Positions 2,381-11,697 of a stretch of DNA of 11,697 nucleotides are shown one piece after another. The stretch is taken from the NCBI GenBank assembly GCA_030591305.1, contig JAUVBI010000082.1:1-11697 (forward strand), in the 5' to 3' direction. Made by a program: the position numbers and the translations under genes. Source of the DNA: Pseudomonadota bacterium (lineage in GTDB: Bacteria; Pseudomonadota; Gammaproteobacteria; Pseudomonadales; Halieaceae). Position 1 is the stretch's first letter. Every line of letters begins with the position of its first letter. The notes under the pieces are model-generated. The model was not told where the DNA came from, ran no database searches, and saw nothing but the letters and a program-made list of their open reading frames with translations.

Positions 2381-5101
2381 CTAGTGCGCCTCGTCCCAGT
2401 TATCCCCTACACCGGTGTCGACCACCAAGGGAATAGCTAACTGCGCCGCCGCAGACATTAAACGGGACAACTCCCCTGCTACCGCCTCCACTTCTGCAGT
2501 GGCCACCTCCAGCACCAACTCATCATGCACCTGCATAATCATGCGGGCATCGACACCGCTGCGCTGTAACCAGTTGTCCACAGCGAGCATGGCGATCTTG
2601 ATAATATCCGCCGCGGTACCCTGCATGGGCGCGTTGATAGCGGTGCGTTCAGCCGCCTGTACCCGCATTTTATTACGCGCATTGATTTCCGGCAGGTACA
2701 GACGTCGGCCAAACAATGTTTCTACATAACCCTGCTCCCTGGCCAGCGCCCGGGTGTCATCCATATAGGCCTGTACACCGGGATAGCGTTCAAAATAGCG
2801 GTCTATGTAATTCTGTGCCTCATGGCGACCCAGATGCAGTTGTTTGCCCAGGCCAAAAGCCGACATACCGTAAATAAGGCCAAAGTTAATCGCCTTGGCC
2901 TTGCGTCGCTGGTCGCCAGATACCTCCTCCAGGGCCACGTCAAAGACCTCAGATGCGGTCGCCCTGTGCACATCCAGGCCCTCATTAAAGGCGCGCAGCA
3001 AACTCTCATCACCGGACAGGTGTGCCATGATGCGCAGTTCAATCTGGGAGTAATCTGCGGCCAGAATTTTGTATCCCGGAGGGGCAATAAAGGCCTGGCG
3101 AATACGCCGGCCCTCCTTCGAGCGAATAGGGATATTTTGCAGGTTAGGGTCTGAGGACGACAGGCGCCCGGTCGCCGTGACCGCCTGGTGGTAGGAGGTA
3201 TGCACCCTGCCGGTAACCGCATTGATCATTCTGGGCAGCTTGTCGGTGTAGGTAGACTTCAGCTTGCTCAGGGTGCGGTATTCCAGCAATAATTTGGGCA
3301 GTGGGTAATCCAGCGCCAGCTCCACCAGCACTTCCTCGGCAGTAGAGGGCGCACCCTTGGGGGTTTTTTTGATGATGGGAAGCTCAAGTTTGGTAAACAG
3401 TATTTCACCCAGCTGCTTGGGAGACCCCAGGTTGAATTCCTGCCCGGCCAGATCATAGGCCCCCTGCTGCAATTCCAGCAGGCGCTCGCCCAGCTCGGCA
3501 CTTTGTTGCAGCAATAGCTCGCGCGACAGCAATGCGCCCTGGCGTTCGATACGCGACAAAACAGGCACCAGCGGCAACTCTATGTCAGTCAGGACCTTGC
3601 TCAGGCCCGGCTCCTGCTCAAACCGGGGCCACAGGGCTTGGTGCAGGCGCAGGGTAATATCCGCGTCTTCCGCCGCATAGGGGCCGGCCTGCTCCAAATC
3701 AATTTGATTAAATGTCAGCGCCTTGGCGCCCTTCCCCGCCACATCTTCAAATTTAATGGTTTTTACGCCCAGGTATTTGAGCGCCAGGGAGTCCATGTCA
3801 TGCCGGGTGGCGGTGGAGTCCAGCACATAGGACTCAAGCATGGTGTCGAACTTGATTCCCGCCAGGGTGATGCCGTGATTGGCCAGCACATTGGCATCGT
3901 ATTTGAGGTTTTGCCCGAGTTTGGCCACATTTTCATCTTCCAGCAGGGGCTTTAACTGTGCCAACACTGCCTCCCGGTCCAGCTGTGCAGGTGCACCCAG
4001 GTAGTCATGGGCCAGGGGCACATAGGCCGCCTTACCCGCTTCCACTGCAAAAGAAACCCCCACAATTCGGGCCTCCATGTACTTCAGGCTGGTGGTCTCA
4101 GTGTCAAAGGCGAACAGCTCGGCATTGCGCAATTTCTCCAGCCAGATATCGAACACCGCCTGATCGGTGATAACTTCATACTCACCGGCAACGCTCTCCG
4201 CTATTTCCAGCTCCTGGCCCTGCTCCATCTGCTCTTCTATCCAGGACCGAAATTCAAGCCGGGTAAACCAATTCAGCAAGGCCTCGCGGTTGGGCTCGGC
4301 GTTGTGCAGTTGGTCTGGCGAATATTCCAGCTCCACGTCCGTTTTTATCGTGGCCAGGGCGTAGGACAGTGTGGCGCTATCTCGCTCAGCCTCCAGTTTG
4401 GCCGCCATCTTTTTGGCGCCACGAAACTCCAGGCCCGCCACTCTATCCAGGTTTGCGTAGATATCATCTACCCCGCCCAGGCCCTGCAACAGTGCCAGCG
4501 CTGTTTTTTGGCCCACGCCCGCCACCCCGGGAATGTTGTCTACTTTATCCCCCATCAGGGCCAGAAAATCGATGATCAGCCCAGGTGGAATGCCAAACTT
4601 CTCAAGCACACCCGCCTCATCCATAACGGTCTCGGTCATGGTATTTACCAAGGTGACATGTGGATTGACCAACTGGGCCATGTCCTTGTCACCGGTGGAT
4701 ATCACAACTGCTATGCCCTGCTCGCTGGCCTGCCTGGCCAGGGTGCCTATCACATCATCGGCCTCCACCCCGGGCTCACAAATGAAGGGTAGGCCCATGG
4801 CCTTGACAATTTCGTGTATGGGCTCGATTTGTTCGCGCAGCTCATCGGGCATGGGTGGGCGATTGGCCTTGTATTGCGGGTACATATCATCGCGAAAGGT
4901 TTTACCCTTGGCATCGAAAATCACCACGAGCGGGCTGTCGGGATAATCCTTTTGCAGGCGTCTGAGCATGTTTATCACACCCTTGACCGCGCCAGTTGCA
5001 TGGCCGGTAGAGGTAATTAAGGGCGGCAGGGCGTGAAAGGCCCGATAAACATAGGAGGAGCCGTCGACTAAAACGATAGGGGGGGTGTTTTCTGTGGCCA
5101 C
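2381..5101 (-). CDS. polA: DNA polymerase I, full length, with both exonuclease domains
   Basis: A 906-residue family A polymerase that removes RNA primers and fills gaps in replication and repair. Residues 1 to about 290 form the 5'-3' nuclease: D13 in [12 protein letters not shown]115/D116 in GVEADDV, D138/D140 in STGDKD, D185/D188 in [10 protein letters not shown], then a helix-hairpin-helix GVGQKTA. Residues 310-500 form the 3'-5' proofreading domain with all carboxylates: D333 and E335 (FDTETTSL), D402 (NLKYDAN), and Y475...D479 (YAAED). Residues 515-906 form the polymerase: motif A D683 ([10 protein letters not shown]), motif B K736-Y744 ([10 protein letters not shown]), motif C H859-D860-E861 (QVHDELV). 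Everything needed for activity is present. The start is GTG at 5101, with a GGGAGAG purine stretch upstream. It begins 19 nt after the sco stop codon, so it may be read with the oxidase assembly genes. It converges with engB. Confidence 0.97.
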
Positions 5102-8127: not shown

Positions 8128-8162
8128 AGCTTAATCCTCTAACCCCAAGCCAGTGCTGCTGG

Positions 8163-8170
8163 TTTATACT
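8163..8170. promoter_or_regulatory. Weak candidate shared -10 region between surf1 and DUF2909 gene
   Basis: In the 70-bp divergent gap, TATACT (8165-8170) reads as a -10 for the plus strand and TATAAA (8168-8163) reads as a -10 for the minus strand. Neither has a recognisable -35 at the right spacing. It sits beside the short palindrome TACTGCAGTA (8167-8176). This is only a possible divergent promoter. Confidence 0.2.
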
Positions 8171-8197
8171 GCAGTAAACTGCTTGAGGAGATATCCT

Positions 8198-8455
8198 TTG
8201 TTAGAAATTGCGATTGTACTACTGTTGCTGGCTTTGATCGCCAGCCTGGGAAGTGGGTTTTACTTCCTGATGGTCGATCAGGGGGATAAAACCAAACATC
8301 GACTCCTGCACTCCCTGGGTGTTCGATTGGGCATAACGATCACCCTGATTGCGATAGTGATCTACGGTGTTGCCACCGGCCAGTTGGGGCACCGCAACCC
8401 CTGGGACAGTGGCCCGGCGACTGCGGACACTAAAACTCAATCGTTTCCGGAGTAA
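8198..8455 (+). CDS. DUF2909-type twin-helix membrane protein of the cox cluster
   Basis: A small inner-membrane protein of 85 residues with two hydrophobic helices, at about 3-24 and 43-60. They are joined by a short polar loop (VDQGDKTKHRLLHSLGVR) and followed by a GQLGHRNPW end and a polar tail. This layout and the gene position between coxC and surf1 match the DUF2909 (twin transmembrane) family found in gammaproteobacterial cox clusters. The function is unknown. I place the start at TTG 8198 because GAGGAG lies 7 nt upstream and the residues fit the family. An ATG at 8153 in the same frame would add 15 polar, unrelated residues and lacks that signal. The gene runs opposite to all neighbours, diverging from surf1 and converging on coxC. 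The stop codon is one base before a 145-bp palindrome. Confidence 0.82.
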   Translation: MLEIAIVLLLLALIASLGSGFYFLMVDQGDKTKHRLLHSLGVRLGITITLIAIVIYGVATGQLGHRNPWDSGPATADTKTQSFPE

Positions 8456-8456
8456 A

Positions 8457-8601
8457 GGGGTCAGTCTATTTGGGGGCAATTTACTTAGTCTATTTGGGGA
8501 CAGTTTACTTATCTATTTGGAATCACGGAGCGTGATTCCAAATAGATAAGTAAACTGTCCCCAAATAGACTAAGTAAATTGCCCCCAAATAGACTGACCC
8601 C
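8457..8601. repeat. 145-bp near-perfect palindrome (71-bp arms, 3-nt loop), MITE/REPIN-like
   Basis: The left arm (8457-8527) and right arm (8531-8601) are exact reverse complements over all 71 positions, around the trinucleotide GAG (8528-8530). Pairing breaks at the next flanking bases (A8456/G8602). The tips are GGGGTC/GACCCC and the centre is the hairpin GGAATCACG-GAG-CGTGATTCC. It fills nearly all of the 153-bp gap between convergent genes, 1 bp after the DUF2909-gene stop and 7 bp before the coxC stop. No target duplication or transposase is seen. It may be a non-autonomous palindromic element (REPIN/MITE kind), and it may act as a transcript end for both genes. The structure is certain; its class is inferred. 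Confidence 0.93.
8464..8511 (+). repeat. Two tandem 24-bp units inside the left arm (mirrored in the right arm)
   Basis: Unit 1 (8464-8487) and unit 2 (8488-8511) are 24 bp each. Both begin GTCTATTTGGGG and end TTTACTTA, and they differ at only two positions (GGCAA versus GACAG in the middle). A third, truncated copy begins at 8512 (TCTATTTGG) before the central hairpin. The right arm carries the same units inverted at 8547-8594. Thus the palindrome is itself built from repeated units. Confidence 0.9.
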
Positions 8602-8608
8602 GCCGTTT

Positions 8609-9583
8609 CTACAAGATATAGACGAACAGGAACAACATTACCCAAACCACGTCGACAAAGTGCCAATACCAGCTGGATGCTTCGAAGCCAAAATGGTCAT
8701 CGGCAGTGAAATGATTGTTTTTCACCGAGCGAATCAACTGCACCAGCAACATGGTCATGCCCATAAAGACGTGAAAACCGTGAAAACCGGTCAACATAAA
8801 GAAGGTTGAGCCGTAGATACCGGAGTCAAGCGTCAGACCAAACTCGGCGTATGCCTCATGGTACTCCATGTACTGTAAGACCAGAAACACAAAGGCCAGC
8901 ACAACACTGATGGCCAGCCACAGGTTAAATTTGCTCTTGTTGCCCGCCAATAGGCCATTGTGTGCGATATGCACAGTTACGCTGGAGGTCAGCAGAATAA
9001 TCGTATTCCACATGGGTAGCCAGGCCCACCACACGTGGGCGTTGGCAAATGCCATGCTCTTGTCAGCGCCGACAAATGTGCCGTTGTTGGCGATAAGTTG
9101 TGATGCGGCACCACCCACTGCATCTTGTGGTGTGGTGACCAGGGGCCATGTAAATTCAAAACCTTCCCACAGCAAATGGCTCATACGGCCAGCATCACCT
9201 TCGCCGCCCAACCACGGGCCCGCCAGGTTGCGCACATAAAACAGGGCACCAAAAAAGGCTGCAAAGAACATCACTTCAGAAAAAATGAACCAGAACATGC
9301 CCAGCACATAGGAACGTTTCAGTTGCACACTGTTCATGCCAGCACGATTTTCTATAACTGCGGTGCGAAACCAGGCGAAAAGCGTCGCTACAAACACAAA
9401 CAAGCCCACCAGTAAGATAGACCAGGAATTACTACCGGCATCCGCACCGCCATAGGTCATATCATTCAATACACTGGAGGCACCAAAGATACTCAGCAGC
9501 AGGCCTATAGTCATGCTTATTGCCAGCCTGCTCTTGGCGGGTACGTAATATTTTTCGTACTCGGTGGACGTCTGACTTGTCAT
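8609..9583 (-). CDS. coxC: Cytochrome c oxidase subunit III
   Basis: A 324-residue inner-membrane subunit of the aa3-type cytochrome c oxidase, which stabilises the catalytic core and proton uptake. Seven hydrophobic helices fit the family. Signature stretches are FWFIFSEVMFFAAFFGALF (97-115, with conserved E103), LPMWNTIILLTSSVTVHIAHN (189-209), GSTFFMLTGFHGFHVFMG (258-275) and FGFEASSWYWHFVDVVWVML (298-317). The N-terminal YYVPAKSRL is also typical. It is longer than the classical 260-290 residues, because the stretch between helices 3 and 4 (about 120-188) is some 30 residues longer than I would expect. The ATG at 9583 has GGAG 7 nt upstream. It follows cox11 after 54 nt, and its 3' end abuts the large palindrome. 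No other start is attractive. Confidence 0.96.
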   Translation of the reverse strand: MTSQTSTEYEKYYVPAKSRLAISMTIGLLLSIFGASSVLNDMTYGGADAGSNSWSILLVGLFVFVATLFAWFRTAVIENRAGMNSVQLKRSYVLGMFWFIFSEVMFFAAFFGALFYVRNLAGPWLGGEGDAGRMSHLLWEGFEFTWPLVTTPQDAVGGAASQLIANNGTFVGADKSMAFANAHVWWAWLPMWNTIILLTSSVTVHIAHNGLLAGNKSKFNLWLAISVVLAFVFLVLQYMEYHEAYAEFGLTLDSGIYGSTFFMLTGFHGFHVFMGMTMLLVQLIRSVKNNHFTADDHFGFEASSWYWHFVDVVWVMLFLFVYIL

Positions 9584-10206: not shown

Positions 10207-11697
10207 CTATTTCACCACCGGTGGCGTTTCAAAGGTGTGGTAGGGCACGGGCGTGGGAAGTGTCCACTCCAGGCCTTCAGCCCCTTCCCAGGTCTTCTCT
10301 TCACTGGTCGGCGTACCGGATCGGATAGTCGCAATCACGTTGTACAGGAACAGAATTTGCGACGCACCATAGATAAAGGCACCGATGCTGGACAACATAT
10401 TGAAGTCGGCAAACTGCAGTGCATAGTCTGGAATACGTCGCGGCATACCTGCCAGCCCTACAAAGTGCTGCGGGAAAAAGGCCAGGTTAAAGCCGACAAA
10501 CGAGATCCAGAAATGCGCCTGACCCATTTTCTCGTTGTACATGCGGCCACACCACTTGGGCAGCCAGTAATAGATGGCCGCCGTCATGCTAAAGATCGCA
10601 CCCGCCACCATCACATAGTGAAAGTGGGCCACAACAAAGTAGCTGTCGTGATACTGGAAATCAGCCGGTGCAATAGCGAGCATCAAACCGGTGAATCCGC
10701 CAATAGTGAACAGGATTATAAAGCCGATGCAAAACATCATGGGCGTTTCAAAGGTTAGCGCACCGCGCCACATAGTCGTCACCCAATTGAAGACCTTCAC
10801 GCCGGTAGGCACTGCAATCAACATGGTGGCATACATAAAGAACAACTCACCGGCTACCGGCATGCCCACGGTATACATGTGGTGAGCCCACACGATAAAC
10901 GACAGGAAGGCGATGGAAGCCGTAGCGTAAACCATGGAATCGTAGCCAAACAGGCGCTTGCGCGAGAAGGTTGGAATGATCTGCGAAACCACACCAAAGG
11001 CCGGCAGAATGATGATGTATACCTCGGGATGCCCGAAAAACCAGAACACGTGCTGGAACAACACTGGGTCGCCGCCGCCCGCCGCGGAGAAGAAGCTGGT
11101 GCCAAAGTGCACGTCCATCAACATCATGGTGACAAGACCTGCCAATACGGGCATCACAGCAATCAACAAGAAGGCCGTGATCAGCCAGGTCCAGACAAAC
11201 AGCGGCATCTTCATATAGGTCATACCGGGGGCACGCATATTCATCACCGTGGCGATGATATTAATAGAGCCCATGATGGACGATAAGCCCAACAGGTGAA
11301 CCGAGAATATAAAGAATGTTACCGAGGGGGCCGCATAGGTCGTAGACAGCGGCGCGTAAAACGTCCAGCCAGCGGCGGGAGCGCCACCTTCCATAAACAA
11401 GGTAGATGCCAACAACAAAAAGGTCGGGGGCAAAATCCAGAAGCTCAGGTTATTCATGCGCGGCAGAGCCATATCCGGAGCACCGATCATCATCGGAATC
11501 ATCCAGTTGGCCAGGCCAACGAAGGAGGGCATAATTGCCCCGAATACCATAACCAGGCCGTGCATGGTGGTCATCTGGTTGAAAAAGGCCGGCTCTACCA
11601 ATTGCATACCGGGCTGAAATAGCTCGGCGCGAATAATCATGGCAAAAGCGCCGCCCAGAATAAACATAGAAAACGAGAACCACAGGTACATGGTTCC
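10207..11697 (-). CDS. coxA: Cytochrome c oxidase subunit I (N-terminus beyond right edge)
   Basis: The catalytic subunit of a haem-copper oxidase, reducing O2 to water with proton pumping in the inner membrane. The reading frame is open to the window end (..GTMYLWFSFSMFILGG), so the ATG at 11691 is internal and the first membrane-proximal residues are missing. Numbering from that internal Met: low-spin haem ligand H44 (TMHGLVMVF), D-channel D73 (APDMALPRMNN), CuB ligand H221 with E223 and cross-linking Y225 (FGHPEVY), CuB ligands H270-H271 (WAHHMYTVGMP), K-channel K299 (VPTGVKVFNW), high-spin haem ligand H356, and H358 (VAHFHYVM). These residues define a type A1, D- and K-channel oxidase. 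No residue that should be conserved in the visible part is missing. cox11 follows after 8 nt. Confidence 0.97.
   Translation of the reverse strand, partial: GTMYLWFSFSMFILGGAFAMIIRAELFQPGMQLVEPAFFNQMTTMHGLVMVFGAIMPSFVGLANWMIPMMIGAPDMALPRMNNLSFWILPPTFLLLASTLFMEGGAPAAGWTFYAPLSTTYAAPSVTFFIFSVHLLGLSSIMGSINIIATVMNMRAPGMTYMKMPLFVWTWLITAFLLIAVMPVLAGLVTMMLMDVHFGTSFFSAAGGGDPVLFQHVFWFFGHPEVYIIILPAFGVVSQIIPTFSRKRLFGYDSMVYATASIAFLSFIVWAHHMYTVGMPVAGELFFMYATMLIAVPTGVKVFNWVTTMWRGALTFETPMMFCIGFIILFTIGGFTGLMLAIAPADFQYHDSYFVVAHFHYVMVAGAIFSMTAAIYYWLPKWCGRMYNEKMGQAHFWISFVGFNLAFFPQHFVGLAGMPRRIPDYALQFADFNMLSSIGAFIYGASQILFLYNVIATIRSGTPTSEEKTWEGAEGLEWTLPTPVPYHTFETPPVVK

What the first reader, a model, noticed from the sequence alone, without database searches (positions are those of the whole stretch)
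8457..8601. Perfect 71-bp inverted repeat with a 3-nt loop between convergent DUF2909 gene and coxC
All 71 base pairs match, with GAG as the only unpaired centre, which is far beyond chance and unusual because long perfect palindromes are normally unstable in bacteria. It occupies 145 of the 153 intergenic bases, almost touching both stop codons. Its perfection implies recent arrival or active correction. Plausible roles are a non-autonomous mobile palindrome mobilised by a REP-associated (Y1) transposase elsewhere, or a two-way transcript barrier and RNase III substrate for opposing mRNAs.
Basis: partly seen in the sequence, partly recalled or inferred. Interest (0 to 1): 0.8.

Follow-up and report, generated by a model that had tools for sequence, protein, structure and literature searches.

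The report
Triple-layered perfect palindrome, transposase-tip family
A 145-base perfect palindrome between two facing genes of a marine-type bacterium is built from three nested copies of the end-sequence of a known kind of small transposon; it is most likely a stripped-down mobile repeat that was copied into mirror symmetry, in a bacterial family where the enzyme that attacks such structures was rarely found.

Summary
Confirmed: two 71-bp arms, 71/71 complementary, loop GAG, at 8457-8601. The palindrome starts and ends exactly on GGGGTCAG/CTGACCCC; each arm holds three tips (GGGGTCAG, GGGGGCAA, GGGGACAG), each followed within 0-9 bases by TCTATTT. Two of the three fit the GGGGWSAS ends of 'TIRYT' Y1 transposases (PMC3733652). 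In relatives (family of G014, a Halioglobus MAG; I call it Halieaceae), 16 of 24 Y1 transposase genes have inward GGGGWCAG tips on both sides, against 0 of 20,000 random placements. Tip type follows the tree of the 20 tip-bearing genes. The inner window tip, GGGGACAGTTTACTTA, flanks such genes (L128, L143). Compact near-perfect two-tip hairpins occur in G014. The tips are absent from the 80 fetched coxC loci of relatives. So the mobile-palindrome reading is supported, as a TIRYT-type element rather than a GTAG REP. No terminator-like site was found. SbcCD was found in only 8 of 140 of these genomes, which may explain tolerance. The window's genome is not held, so copy number and a cognate transposase there are untested.

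The parts
8457..8601 (.). whole palindromic element, tip to tip
   Evidence: 71/71 complementary arms, loop of 3; starts at GGGGTCAG, ends at CTGACCCC
8457..8527 (+). left arm: GGGGTCAG-TCTATTT | GGGGGCAATTTACTTAG-TCTATTT | GGGGACAGTTTACTTA-TCTATTT | GGAATCACG
8528..8530 (.). unpaired centre GAG
8531..8601 (-). right arm, exact reverse complement of the left arm
8457..8464 (+). outer tip GGGGTCAG (fits GGGGWSAS); mirror copy at 8594-8601
   Evidence: consensus from PMC3733652 section 16
8472..8479 (+). middle tip GGGGGCAA (does not fit GGGGWSAS); mirror copy at 8579-8586
8496..8503 (+). inner tip GGGGACAG, continued by TTTACTTA; mirror copy at 8555-8562
   Evidence: the same 16-mer flanks Y1 transposase genes L128 and L143
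8463..8510 (+). two 24-bp direct repeats (tandem layer units), 92% identical; mirrored at 8547-8594 (reported there as 8547-8570 and 8571-8594)
8519..8539 (.). central 9-bp hairpin GGAATCACG-GAG-CGTGATTCC, the proposed fold-back point
   Evidence: role inferred
8153..8455 (+). DUF2909 gene, convergent with coxC
   Evidence: PF11137 E 1e-14
8609..9583 (-). coxC, cytochrome c oxidase subunit III
   Evidence: PF00510 E 3.2e-46

Best explanation
It is a non-autonomous, palindromic member of the TIRYT ('TIRtron') repeat family: inverted GGGGWCAG tips of an IS200/IS605-like Y1 (HuH) transposase, without the gene. SHOWN: the boundaries coincide with the tips; such tips flank Y1 transposase genes in relatives; compact two-tip hairpins of the family sit at several places in one relative; the tips are absent from the coxC loci of 80 relatives. 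INFERRED: (1) tandem tip units arose, as seen beside transposase genes; (2) two of them diverged by two substitutions; (3) the array was then copied into mirror symmetry by fold-back synthesis or template switching at the small central hairpin, because both arms carry the same layer-specific differences; (4) the element came, probably by single-strand insertion, into the gap between two stop codons where it does no harm. Its effect on the two mRNAs is at most a large 3' hairpin. It may persist because most Halieaceae seem to lack SbcCD.
For: Tip-exact ends and three tips per arm. 16 of 24 Y1 genes (16 of 25 with L183) have inward GGGG(A/T)CAG tips on both sides within 550 bp; control 0 of 20,000. 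A first count with narrower flanks gave 14 of 24, and 1 of 24 for the outward orientation. 8 of 8 scanned are Y1_Tnp PF01797. Tree of the 20 genes with a tip type: 7 types, 6 changes, the minimum; shuffled mean 13.8, as low in 0 of 200. GGGGACAGTTTACTTA flanks the gene at L107 3191-3868; decayed relatives of that gene in G055 and G233 (58-59% identity) have GGGGACAGTTTAC- or GGGGACAGTCTAC-type tips nearby (L186, L185). Two-tip elements: 30 hits in G014, 0 for the reversed pattern; of 26 non-overlapping ones 10 are compact (38-46 nt), 9 of these with at most 3 mismatching pairs. Three share an identical 20-bp arm with different loops and show no similarity 30-330 bp away (L164, L166, L179). Extra outward tips on at least one side: 12 of 24 fetched elements against 493 of 40,000 random places. 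No GTCTATTTGGGG or GGGGACAGTTTACT in any of the 80 coxC loci. SbcC and SbcD in the same 8 of 140 genomes.
Against: No whole genome for the window, so no copy count and no transposase there. The nearest relative by coxC, G001 (83% identity), has neither the element (best E 0.29) nor a transposase hit at E 1e-20. The exact 20-mer ATTTGGGGACAGTTTACTTA was in 0 of 390 genomes of the order and 0 viral contigs; in the class sample 1 of 369 genomes matched the arm at E <= 0.001 (G233; at that threshold even tip-rich G014 gave none). The intact Y1 gene of G233 (L183) has no such tips. 8 of the 24 family genes do not have tips on both sides (4 on one side, 4 on none). The middle tip does not fit the consensus. 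No other element seen is perfect through three layers; the nearest, L155, is perfect for 34 bp and imperfect outside. SbcCD absence is the family norm, not specific to element carriers (Fisher p = 1.0).
Confidence: 0.78

Rival explanations
1. Two-way transcript barrier: the palindrome is kept by selection as a bidirectional 3'-end structure (pause site, RNase III substrate or 3' stabiliser) for the convergent DUF2909 and cox mRNAs.
For: It sits between two stop codons and would give a very stable RNA hairpin. Several relatives have hairpins with T-runs at this junction, e.g. L037, L070, L075.
Against: No terminator-like site within 8300-8760 on either strand. In 31 of 80 relatives the computed gap is 10 bp or less, overlaps included, so no such barrier is needed there. 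It does not explain transposase tips at both ends.
Confidence: 0.12
2. Classical GTAG REP / REPIN mobilised by a canonical RAYT.
For: Palindromic, intergenic, between convergent genes, Y1-type mobilisation.
Against: No GT[AG]G foot at either end; canonical REPs have that foot (PMC6006769 section 12) and are given as 20-40 bp (PMC3733652 abstract). The genes found carry GGGG tips, mostly with NHVH and often Y-ELNP motifs.
Confidence: 0.03
3. Assembly artefact: a fold-back or error that made an imperfect repeat perfect.
For: A second long palindrome met here (L105, G003) runs past its element into an inverted copy of the end of the preceding gene, 4 mismatches in 92 nt, and stops at the contig end, which looks like an assembly fold-back or strain chimera.
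Against: In the window the palindrome lies inside the contig with a different gene on each side, and a DUF2909 match faces coxC in all 80 relatives. The palindrome ends exactly on transposon tips, which an artefact would not be expected to do.
Confidence: 0.05

Closest known systems
TIR repeats of TIRYT transposases ('TIRtrons'), Di Nocera et al. 2013, PMC3733652 (abstract, section 16, section 17 part 1, and passages seen; figures and supplements not)
   Same: GGGGWSAS ends, association with Y1/HuH transposases, TIR elements organised in dimers or clusters.
   Different: Here three tips are nested in each arm and the whole 145 bp is perfectly symmetric. I met no layered perfect case in the parts read; the word 'perfect' does not occur in its main text.
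TnpAY1 subclass 2.1, Quentin et al. 2018, PMC6006769 (abstract, section 12 and part 1 of section 15 read)
   Same: 19 of 25 genes here carry NHVH and 12 of 25 a Y(I/V/T)ELNP motif, close to the subclass 2.1 motifs; the paper holds that subclass 2.1 probably corresponds to TIRYT.
   Different: The additional C-terminal HTH domain of subclass 2.1 was not detected in the 8 gene pieces scanned. The paper found no REP-like sequences at subclass 2.1 genes, only inverted repeats reported by others.
'Double foot' REPs of subclass 2.4 (PMC6006769 section 12)
   Same: A hairpin with the recognition motif at both ends, which could arise by central deletion between two inverted REPs; the compact G014 hairpins look like that.
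   Different: Motif GT[AG]G there, GGGG(A/T)CAG here.
REPINs / BIMEs of GTAG REPs (PMC2817692, passages; PMC3116915, search listing only)
   Same: Inverted pairs of transposase-associated sequences dispersed between genes.
   Different: No GTAG foot; different tip sequence.

Membership tests
TIRYT-associated TIR repeats | GGGGWSAS motif at the repeat ends | tested here: met
   Outer GGGGTCAG and inner GGGGACAG fit; the middle GGGGGCAA does not
TIRYT-associated TIR repeats | the same repeat flanks a Y1 transposase gene in inverted orientation | tested here: met
   In relatives only: 16 of 25 genes have such tips on both sides; GGGGACAGTTTACTTA itself on both sides of L128 and L143. Not testable in the window's own genome
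TIRYT-associated TIR repeats | several dispersed copies in the same genome | not testable with these tools
   No genome held. In relatives: 30 hits in G014, 26 in G051
TIRYT-associated TIR repeats | dimers in inverted orientation | tested here: met
TnpAY1 subclass 2.1 (cognate transposase) | HuH NHVH and Y[IV]ELNP-like motifs, additional C-terminal HTH domain | tested here: inconclusive
   NHVH in 19 of 25, Y(I/V/T)ELNP in 12 of 25 by pattern; only Y1_Tnp found by Pfam, no HTH, in 8 matched pieces that were not whole ORFs
GTAG REP / REPIN | GT[AG]G tetranucleotide at the foot of the hairpin | tested here: not met
   Flanks are GGAGTAAA | GGGG and CCCC | GCCGTTTC
IS200/IS605-type single-strand insertion | no target-site duplication (recalled) | tested here: inconclusive
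   No direct repeat seen by eye at the two edges; no alignable empty site, since the remaining gap would be 8 bp
Intrinsic terminator | G+C-rich stem followed by a U-tract | tested here: not met
   0 terminator-like sites in 8300-8760, shuffles mean 0.8
Curated Rfam RNA family | score above the gathering cut-off | tested here: not met
   14 matches up to E 1 (best 2.6e-8), all below gathering scores, mostly microRNA-precursor models

The most novel reading that the evidence does not exclude
The element perfects itself: covalent Y1-transposase complexes at its tips block replication and provoke template switching across the hairpin, so each round of cutting adds tip layers and makes the arms identical. 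In a family that has largely lost SbcCD such palindromes are not destroyed, so they grow outward by layers.
Probability: 0.12. Interest if true: 0.7.

Novelty: new variant of a known kind. Interest (0 to 1): 0.45.

Why it matters
Only two papers in the held library mention the name TIRYT, and the parts I read leave open whether these GGGG-tipped repeats are moved by their transposases and how pairs become hairpins. Here tip type tracks the transposase tree, and the window gives an ordered record: tandem tips, divergence, then mirror copying. The rarity of SbcCD in this family, if it holds in closed genomes, offers a natural system for asking whether that nuclease sets the length limit of bacterial palindromes.

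Tried and rejected
No match to the palindrome in plasmids or phages at E 1, nor to two exact patterns in viral contigs. The exact tip 20-mer was in 0 of 390 genomes of the order. A literature search for GGGGTCAG with transposase gave 16 papers, none of the 15 listed about this subject by title. L105 (G003) was first noted as a second long perfect palindrome (note); I demoted it, because outside a 63-nt element (29-bp arms) its arms are the end of the preceding ORF (L105 333-2222, a topoisomerase IV B-like gene, name recalled) and its inverted copy, at a contig end; copies of that gene 79-80% identical lie elsewhere in G003 and G010, and no empty site could be read from them by me. Preference for convergent gaps: 6 convergent, 15 same direction, 3 divergent, 2 at an edge, of 26 rows by a crude ORF caller (two of them nested repeats of another row), so not shown. 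Association of SbcCD absence with element carriers: not found (0 of 8 with SbcCD, 7 of 132 without; p = 1.0). A first layering count with one mismatch allowed had a weak control (17 of 24 against 5,175 of 20,000); the exact-motif count replaces it. In one search only the 20 of 25 transposases with a tip type were used; I assigned the types by eye, some rows are near-copies, L143 is a fragment (27% of columns), and the program warned that two long branches meet. In one search, 27 of 30 G014 hits were measured (3 nested ones dropped), plus 6 from other genomes. The 24 elements are those whose surroundings I had fetched, not all: for G051, 8 of 26. Many of them came from a search that required ATTT beside the tip, so the ATTT there is not independent evidence. 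In one search only 5 of about 10-34 candidates per genome were scored for SbcC; for SbcD all were, and one search scored all SbcC candidates in 10 genomes with the same outcome (3 with SbcC). Of 14 named control genomes 9 rang for SbcC and 10 for SbcD, E. coli in both.

Full report
CHECK. The palindrome is real in the sequence: arms 8457-8527 and 8531-8601, 71 of 71 complementary, loop GAG. It fills 145 of the 153 bases between the DUF2909 stop (8453-8455) and the coxC stop (8609-8611). Chance is excluded: the next longest perfect inverted repeat with a loop under 20 nt in the window has 14-bp arms, and none of 200 shuffles folds as well.

ANATOMY. The palindrome begins at the first G of GGGGTCAG and ends at the last C of CTGACCCC. 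One arm reads GGGGTCAG-TCTATTT, GGGGGCAATTTACTTAG-TCTATTT, GGGGACAGTTTACTTA-TCTATTT, GGAATCACG. Thus there are three concentric tips and three copies of TCTATTT. The arm holds a 24-bp direct repeat, 92% identical. The two differences between the units are the same in both arms; so the units diverged before the arms were made, or last made, identical. This order of events is a direct reading of the sequence; the process is inferred.

WHERE IT COMES FROM. The 80 best coxC relatives are mostly labelled Halieaceae or genera that I recall as Halieaceae, best 83% identity. No whole genome is held for the window. In 80 of 80 relatives a DUF2909 match (tblastn E <= 1) faces coxC. The computed gap is at most 10 bp in 31, 11-60 in 17, 61-150 in 18 and over 150 in 14; the first class includes seven computed overlaps, two of them (L013, L066) so large that the ends may be mis-called. 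None of the 80 loci contains GTCTATTTGGGG, TCTATTTGGGG or GGGGACAGTTTACT. The nearest, L001, has a 50-bp gap without palindrome. Without the palindrome the window's gap would be 8 bp, within the commonest class. Three relatives carry another repeat in this gap (L022, L025, L045: CATCCCCGC...GCGGGGAT pairs), which resembles the CGTC-tagged REPs of PMC3733652 (my comparison), so the gap has received palindromic repeats more than once.

THE FAMILY. Searching 20 relatives with the palindrome gave matches in 16 at E <= 10, mostly weak and tip-only, most of all in G014. In G014 a Y1 transposase ORF (L107 3191-3868) lies between inverted GGGGACAGTTTACTTA tips at 3059 and 3871. A search of the 140 genomes of G014's family (G014 is the genome of L014, a Halioglobus MAG; I call the family Halieaceae) with that protein gave 24 genes in 21 genomes at E <= 1e-20. 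Of these, 16 have inward GGGG(A/T)CAG tips on both sides within 550 bp, 4 on one side, 4 on none; one further gene from G233 (L183) has none; random placements in coxC loci gave 0 of 20,000. Eight of eight scanned are Y1_Tnp. On the tree of the 20 genes with a tip type, the seven types need six changes, the minimum. So the sequence behind GGGG(A/T)CAG goes with the transposase lineage. Tandem tips beside the genes recur; one, L147, has CTATTTGGGGTCAGAACTCTATTTGGGGTCAG, very like the window's layers. Decayed relatives of the L107 gene in G055 and G233 also lie near GGGGACAGTTTAC- or GGGGACAGTCTAC-type tips (L186, two; L185, one), and both genomes hold two-tip elements of the window's inner-tip type.

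NON-AUTONOMOUS COPIES. Two-tip elements occur in 5 of 140 and 3 of 140 genomes, 7 of 140 together. G014 has 30 hits and no hit of the reversed pattern. Of 26 non-overlapping ones, 10 are 38-46 nt long and 9 of these have at most 3 mismatching pairs; the others have a longer unpaired centre, and one (C363) may be chance. Three share an identical 20-bp arm and differ in the loop; their immediate flanks share ATATTT-type layers, but from 30 to 330 bp away no similarity was found. Of 24 elements with fetched surroundings, 12 have a further outward tip on at least one side, 4 on both; random places 493 and 6 of 40,000. L155 is a two-sided layered case, perfect for 34 bp and imperfect outside. The window's element is the same design, with perfect symmetry through all layers.

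MECHANISM. Most likely a GGGG-tipped element of this kind came to lie between the two stop codons, and its symmetry was made by fold-back synthesis or template switching at the central hairpin GGAATCACG-GAG-CGTGATTCC. Arm homogenisation by template switching is described (PMC8604942, start of abstract in a listing), and covalent DNA-protein complexes stimulate template switching in E. coli (PMC6357072, abstract). That a Y1 transposase does so is my proposal. A role as intrinsic terminator is not supported.

WHY IT MAY BE TOLERATED. In E. coli SbcCD cleaves the hairpin of a 246-bp interrupted palindrome (PMC3315005, passages), and cells with a 460-bp perfect palindrome die when SbcCD is present (PMC4245961, passages); I saw no result for a perfect palindrome near 145 bp. 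SbcC was found in 8 of 140 genomes of the family and SbcD in the same 8; E. coli rang as a control in both. Completeness of these genomes is not told, and the SbcC search scored only the first candidates of each genome. None of the seven element carriers has SbcCD, but with so few positives this is no association.

WHAT IS KNOWN. TIRYT genes with GGGGWSAS repeats, in dimers or clusters, are described in PMC3733652 (section 16), and probably correspond to subclass 2.1 of PMC6006769 (section 15 part 1). So the kind is known. I met no report of a layered perfect case in two searches (listings) and in the parts of those papers that I read; figures and supplements were not seen. The novelty is one of degree and structure.

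Noticed in passing
140 genomes of G014's family (Halieaceae): SbcC and SbcD are found in only 8 of 140 genomes, the same 8 for both; the family as a whole seems to lack the hairpin nuclease.
   Followed up: partly
L144, L145, L146, L151: Y1 genes with NHYH motifs and ORFs of 280-316 aa, resembling subclass 2.3, have GGGGTCAGGTCT tips nearby (both sides in L145 and L151, one side in L144 and L146), although PMC6006769 reports no REP-like structure at subclass 2.3 genes.
   Followed up: no
L022, L025, L045, gap between coxC and DUF2909: A different palindromic repeat (CATCCCCGC...GCGGGGAT pairs, CGTC-like) occupies the same gap in three relatives.
   Followed up: partly
L003 and L010, gap of 153 bp after coxC; also L029 and, by eye, L005: A 13-16 bp inverted repeat with a 28-nt loop (e.g. 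GAAAATAGCCAAATAA...TTATTTGGCTATTTTC) occupies the gap; nature unknown.
   Followed up: no
L105 2160-2351 (G003 C109): A GGGGACAG hairpin lies directly after a gene end and is followed by an inverted copy of that gene end with 4 mismatches in 92 nt, at a contig end: fold-back assembly or true inverted duplication.
   Followed up: partly
G014 C4:11105-22952: Two-tip elements at 11105, 14451 and 20383 lie within 12 kb of a Y1 gene with the same tips (L150), like the local clustering near transposase genes reported in PMC2817692 (passage).
   Followed up: no
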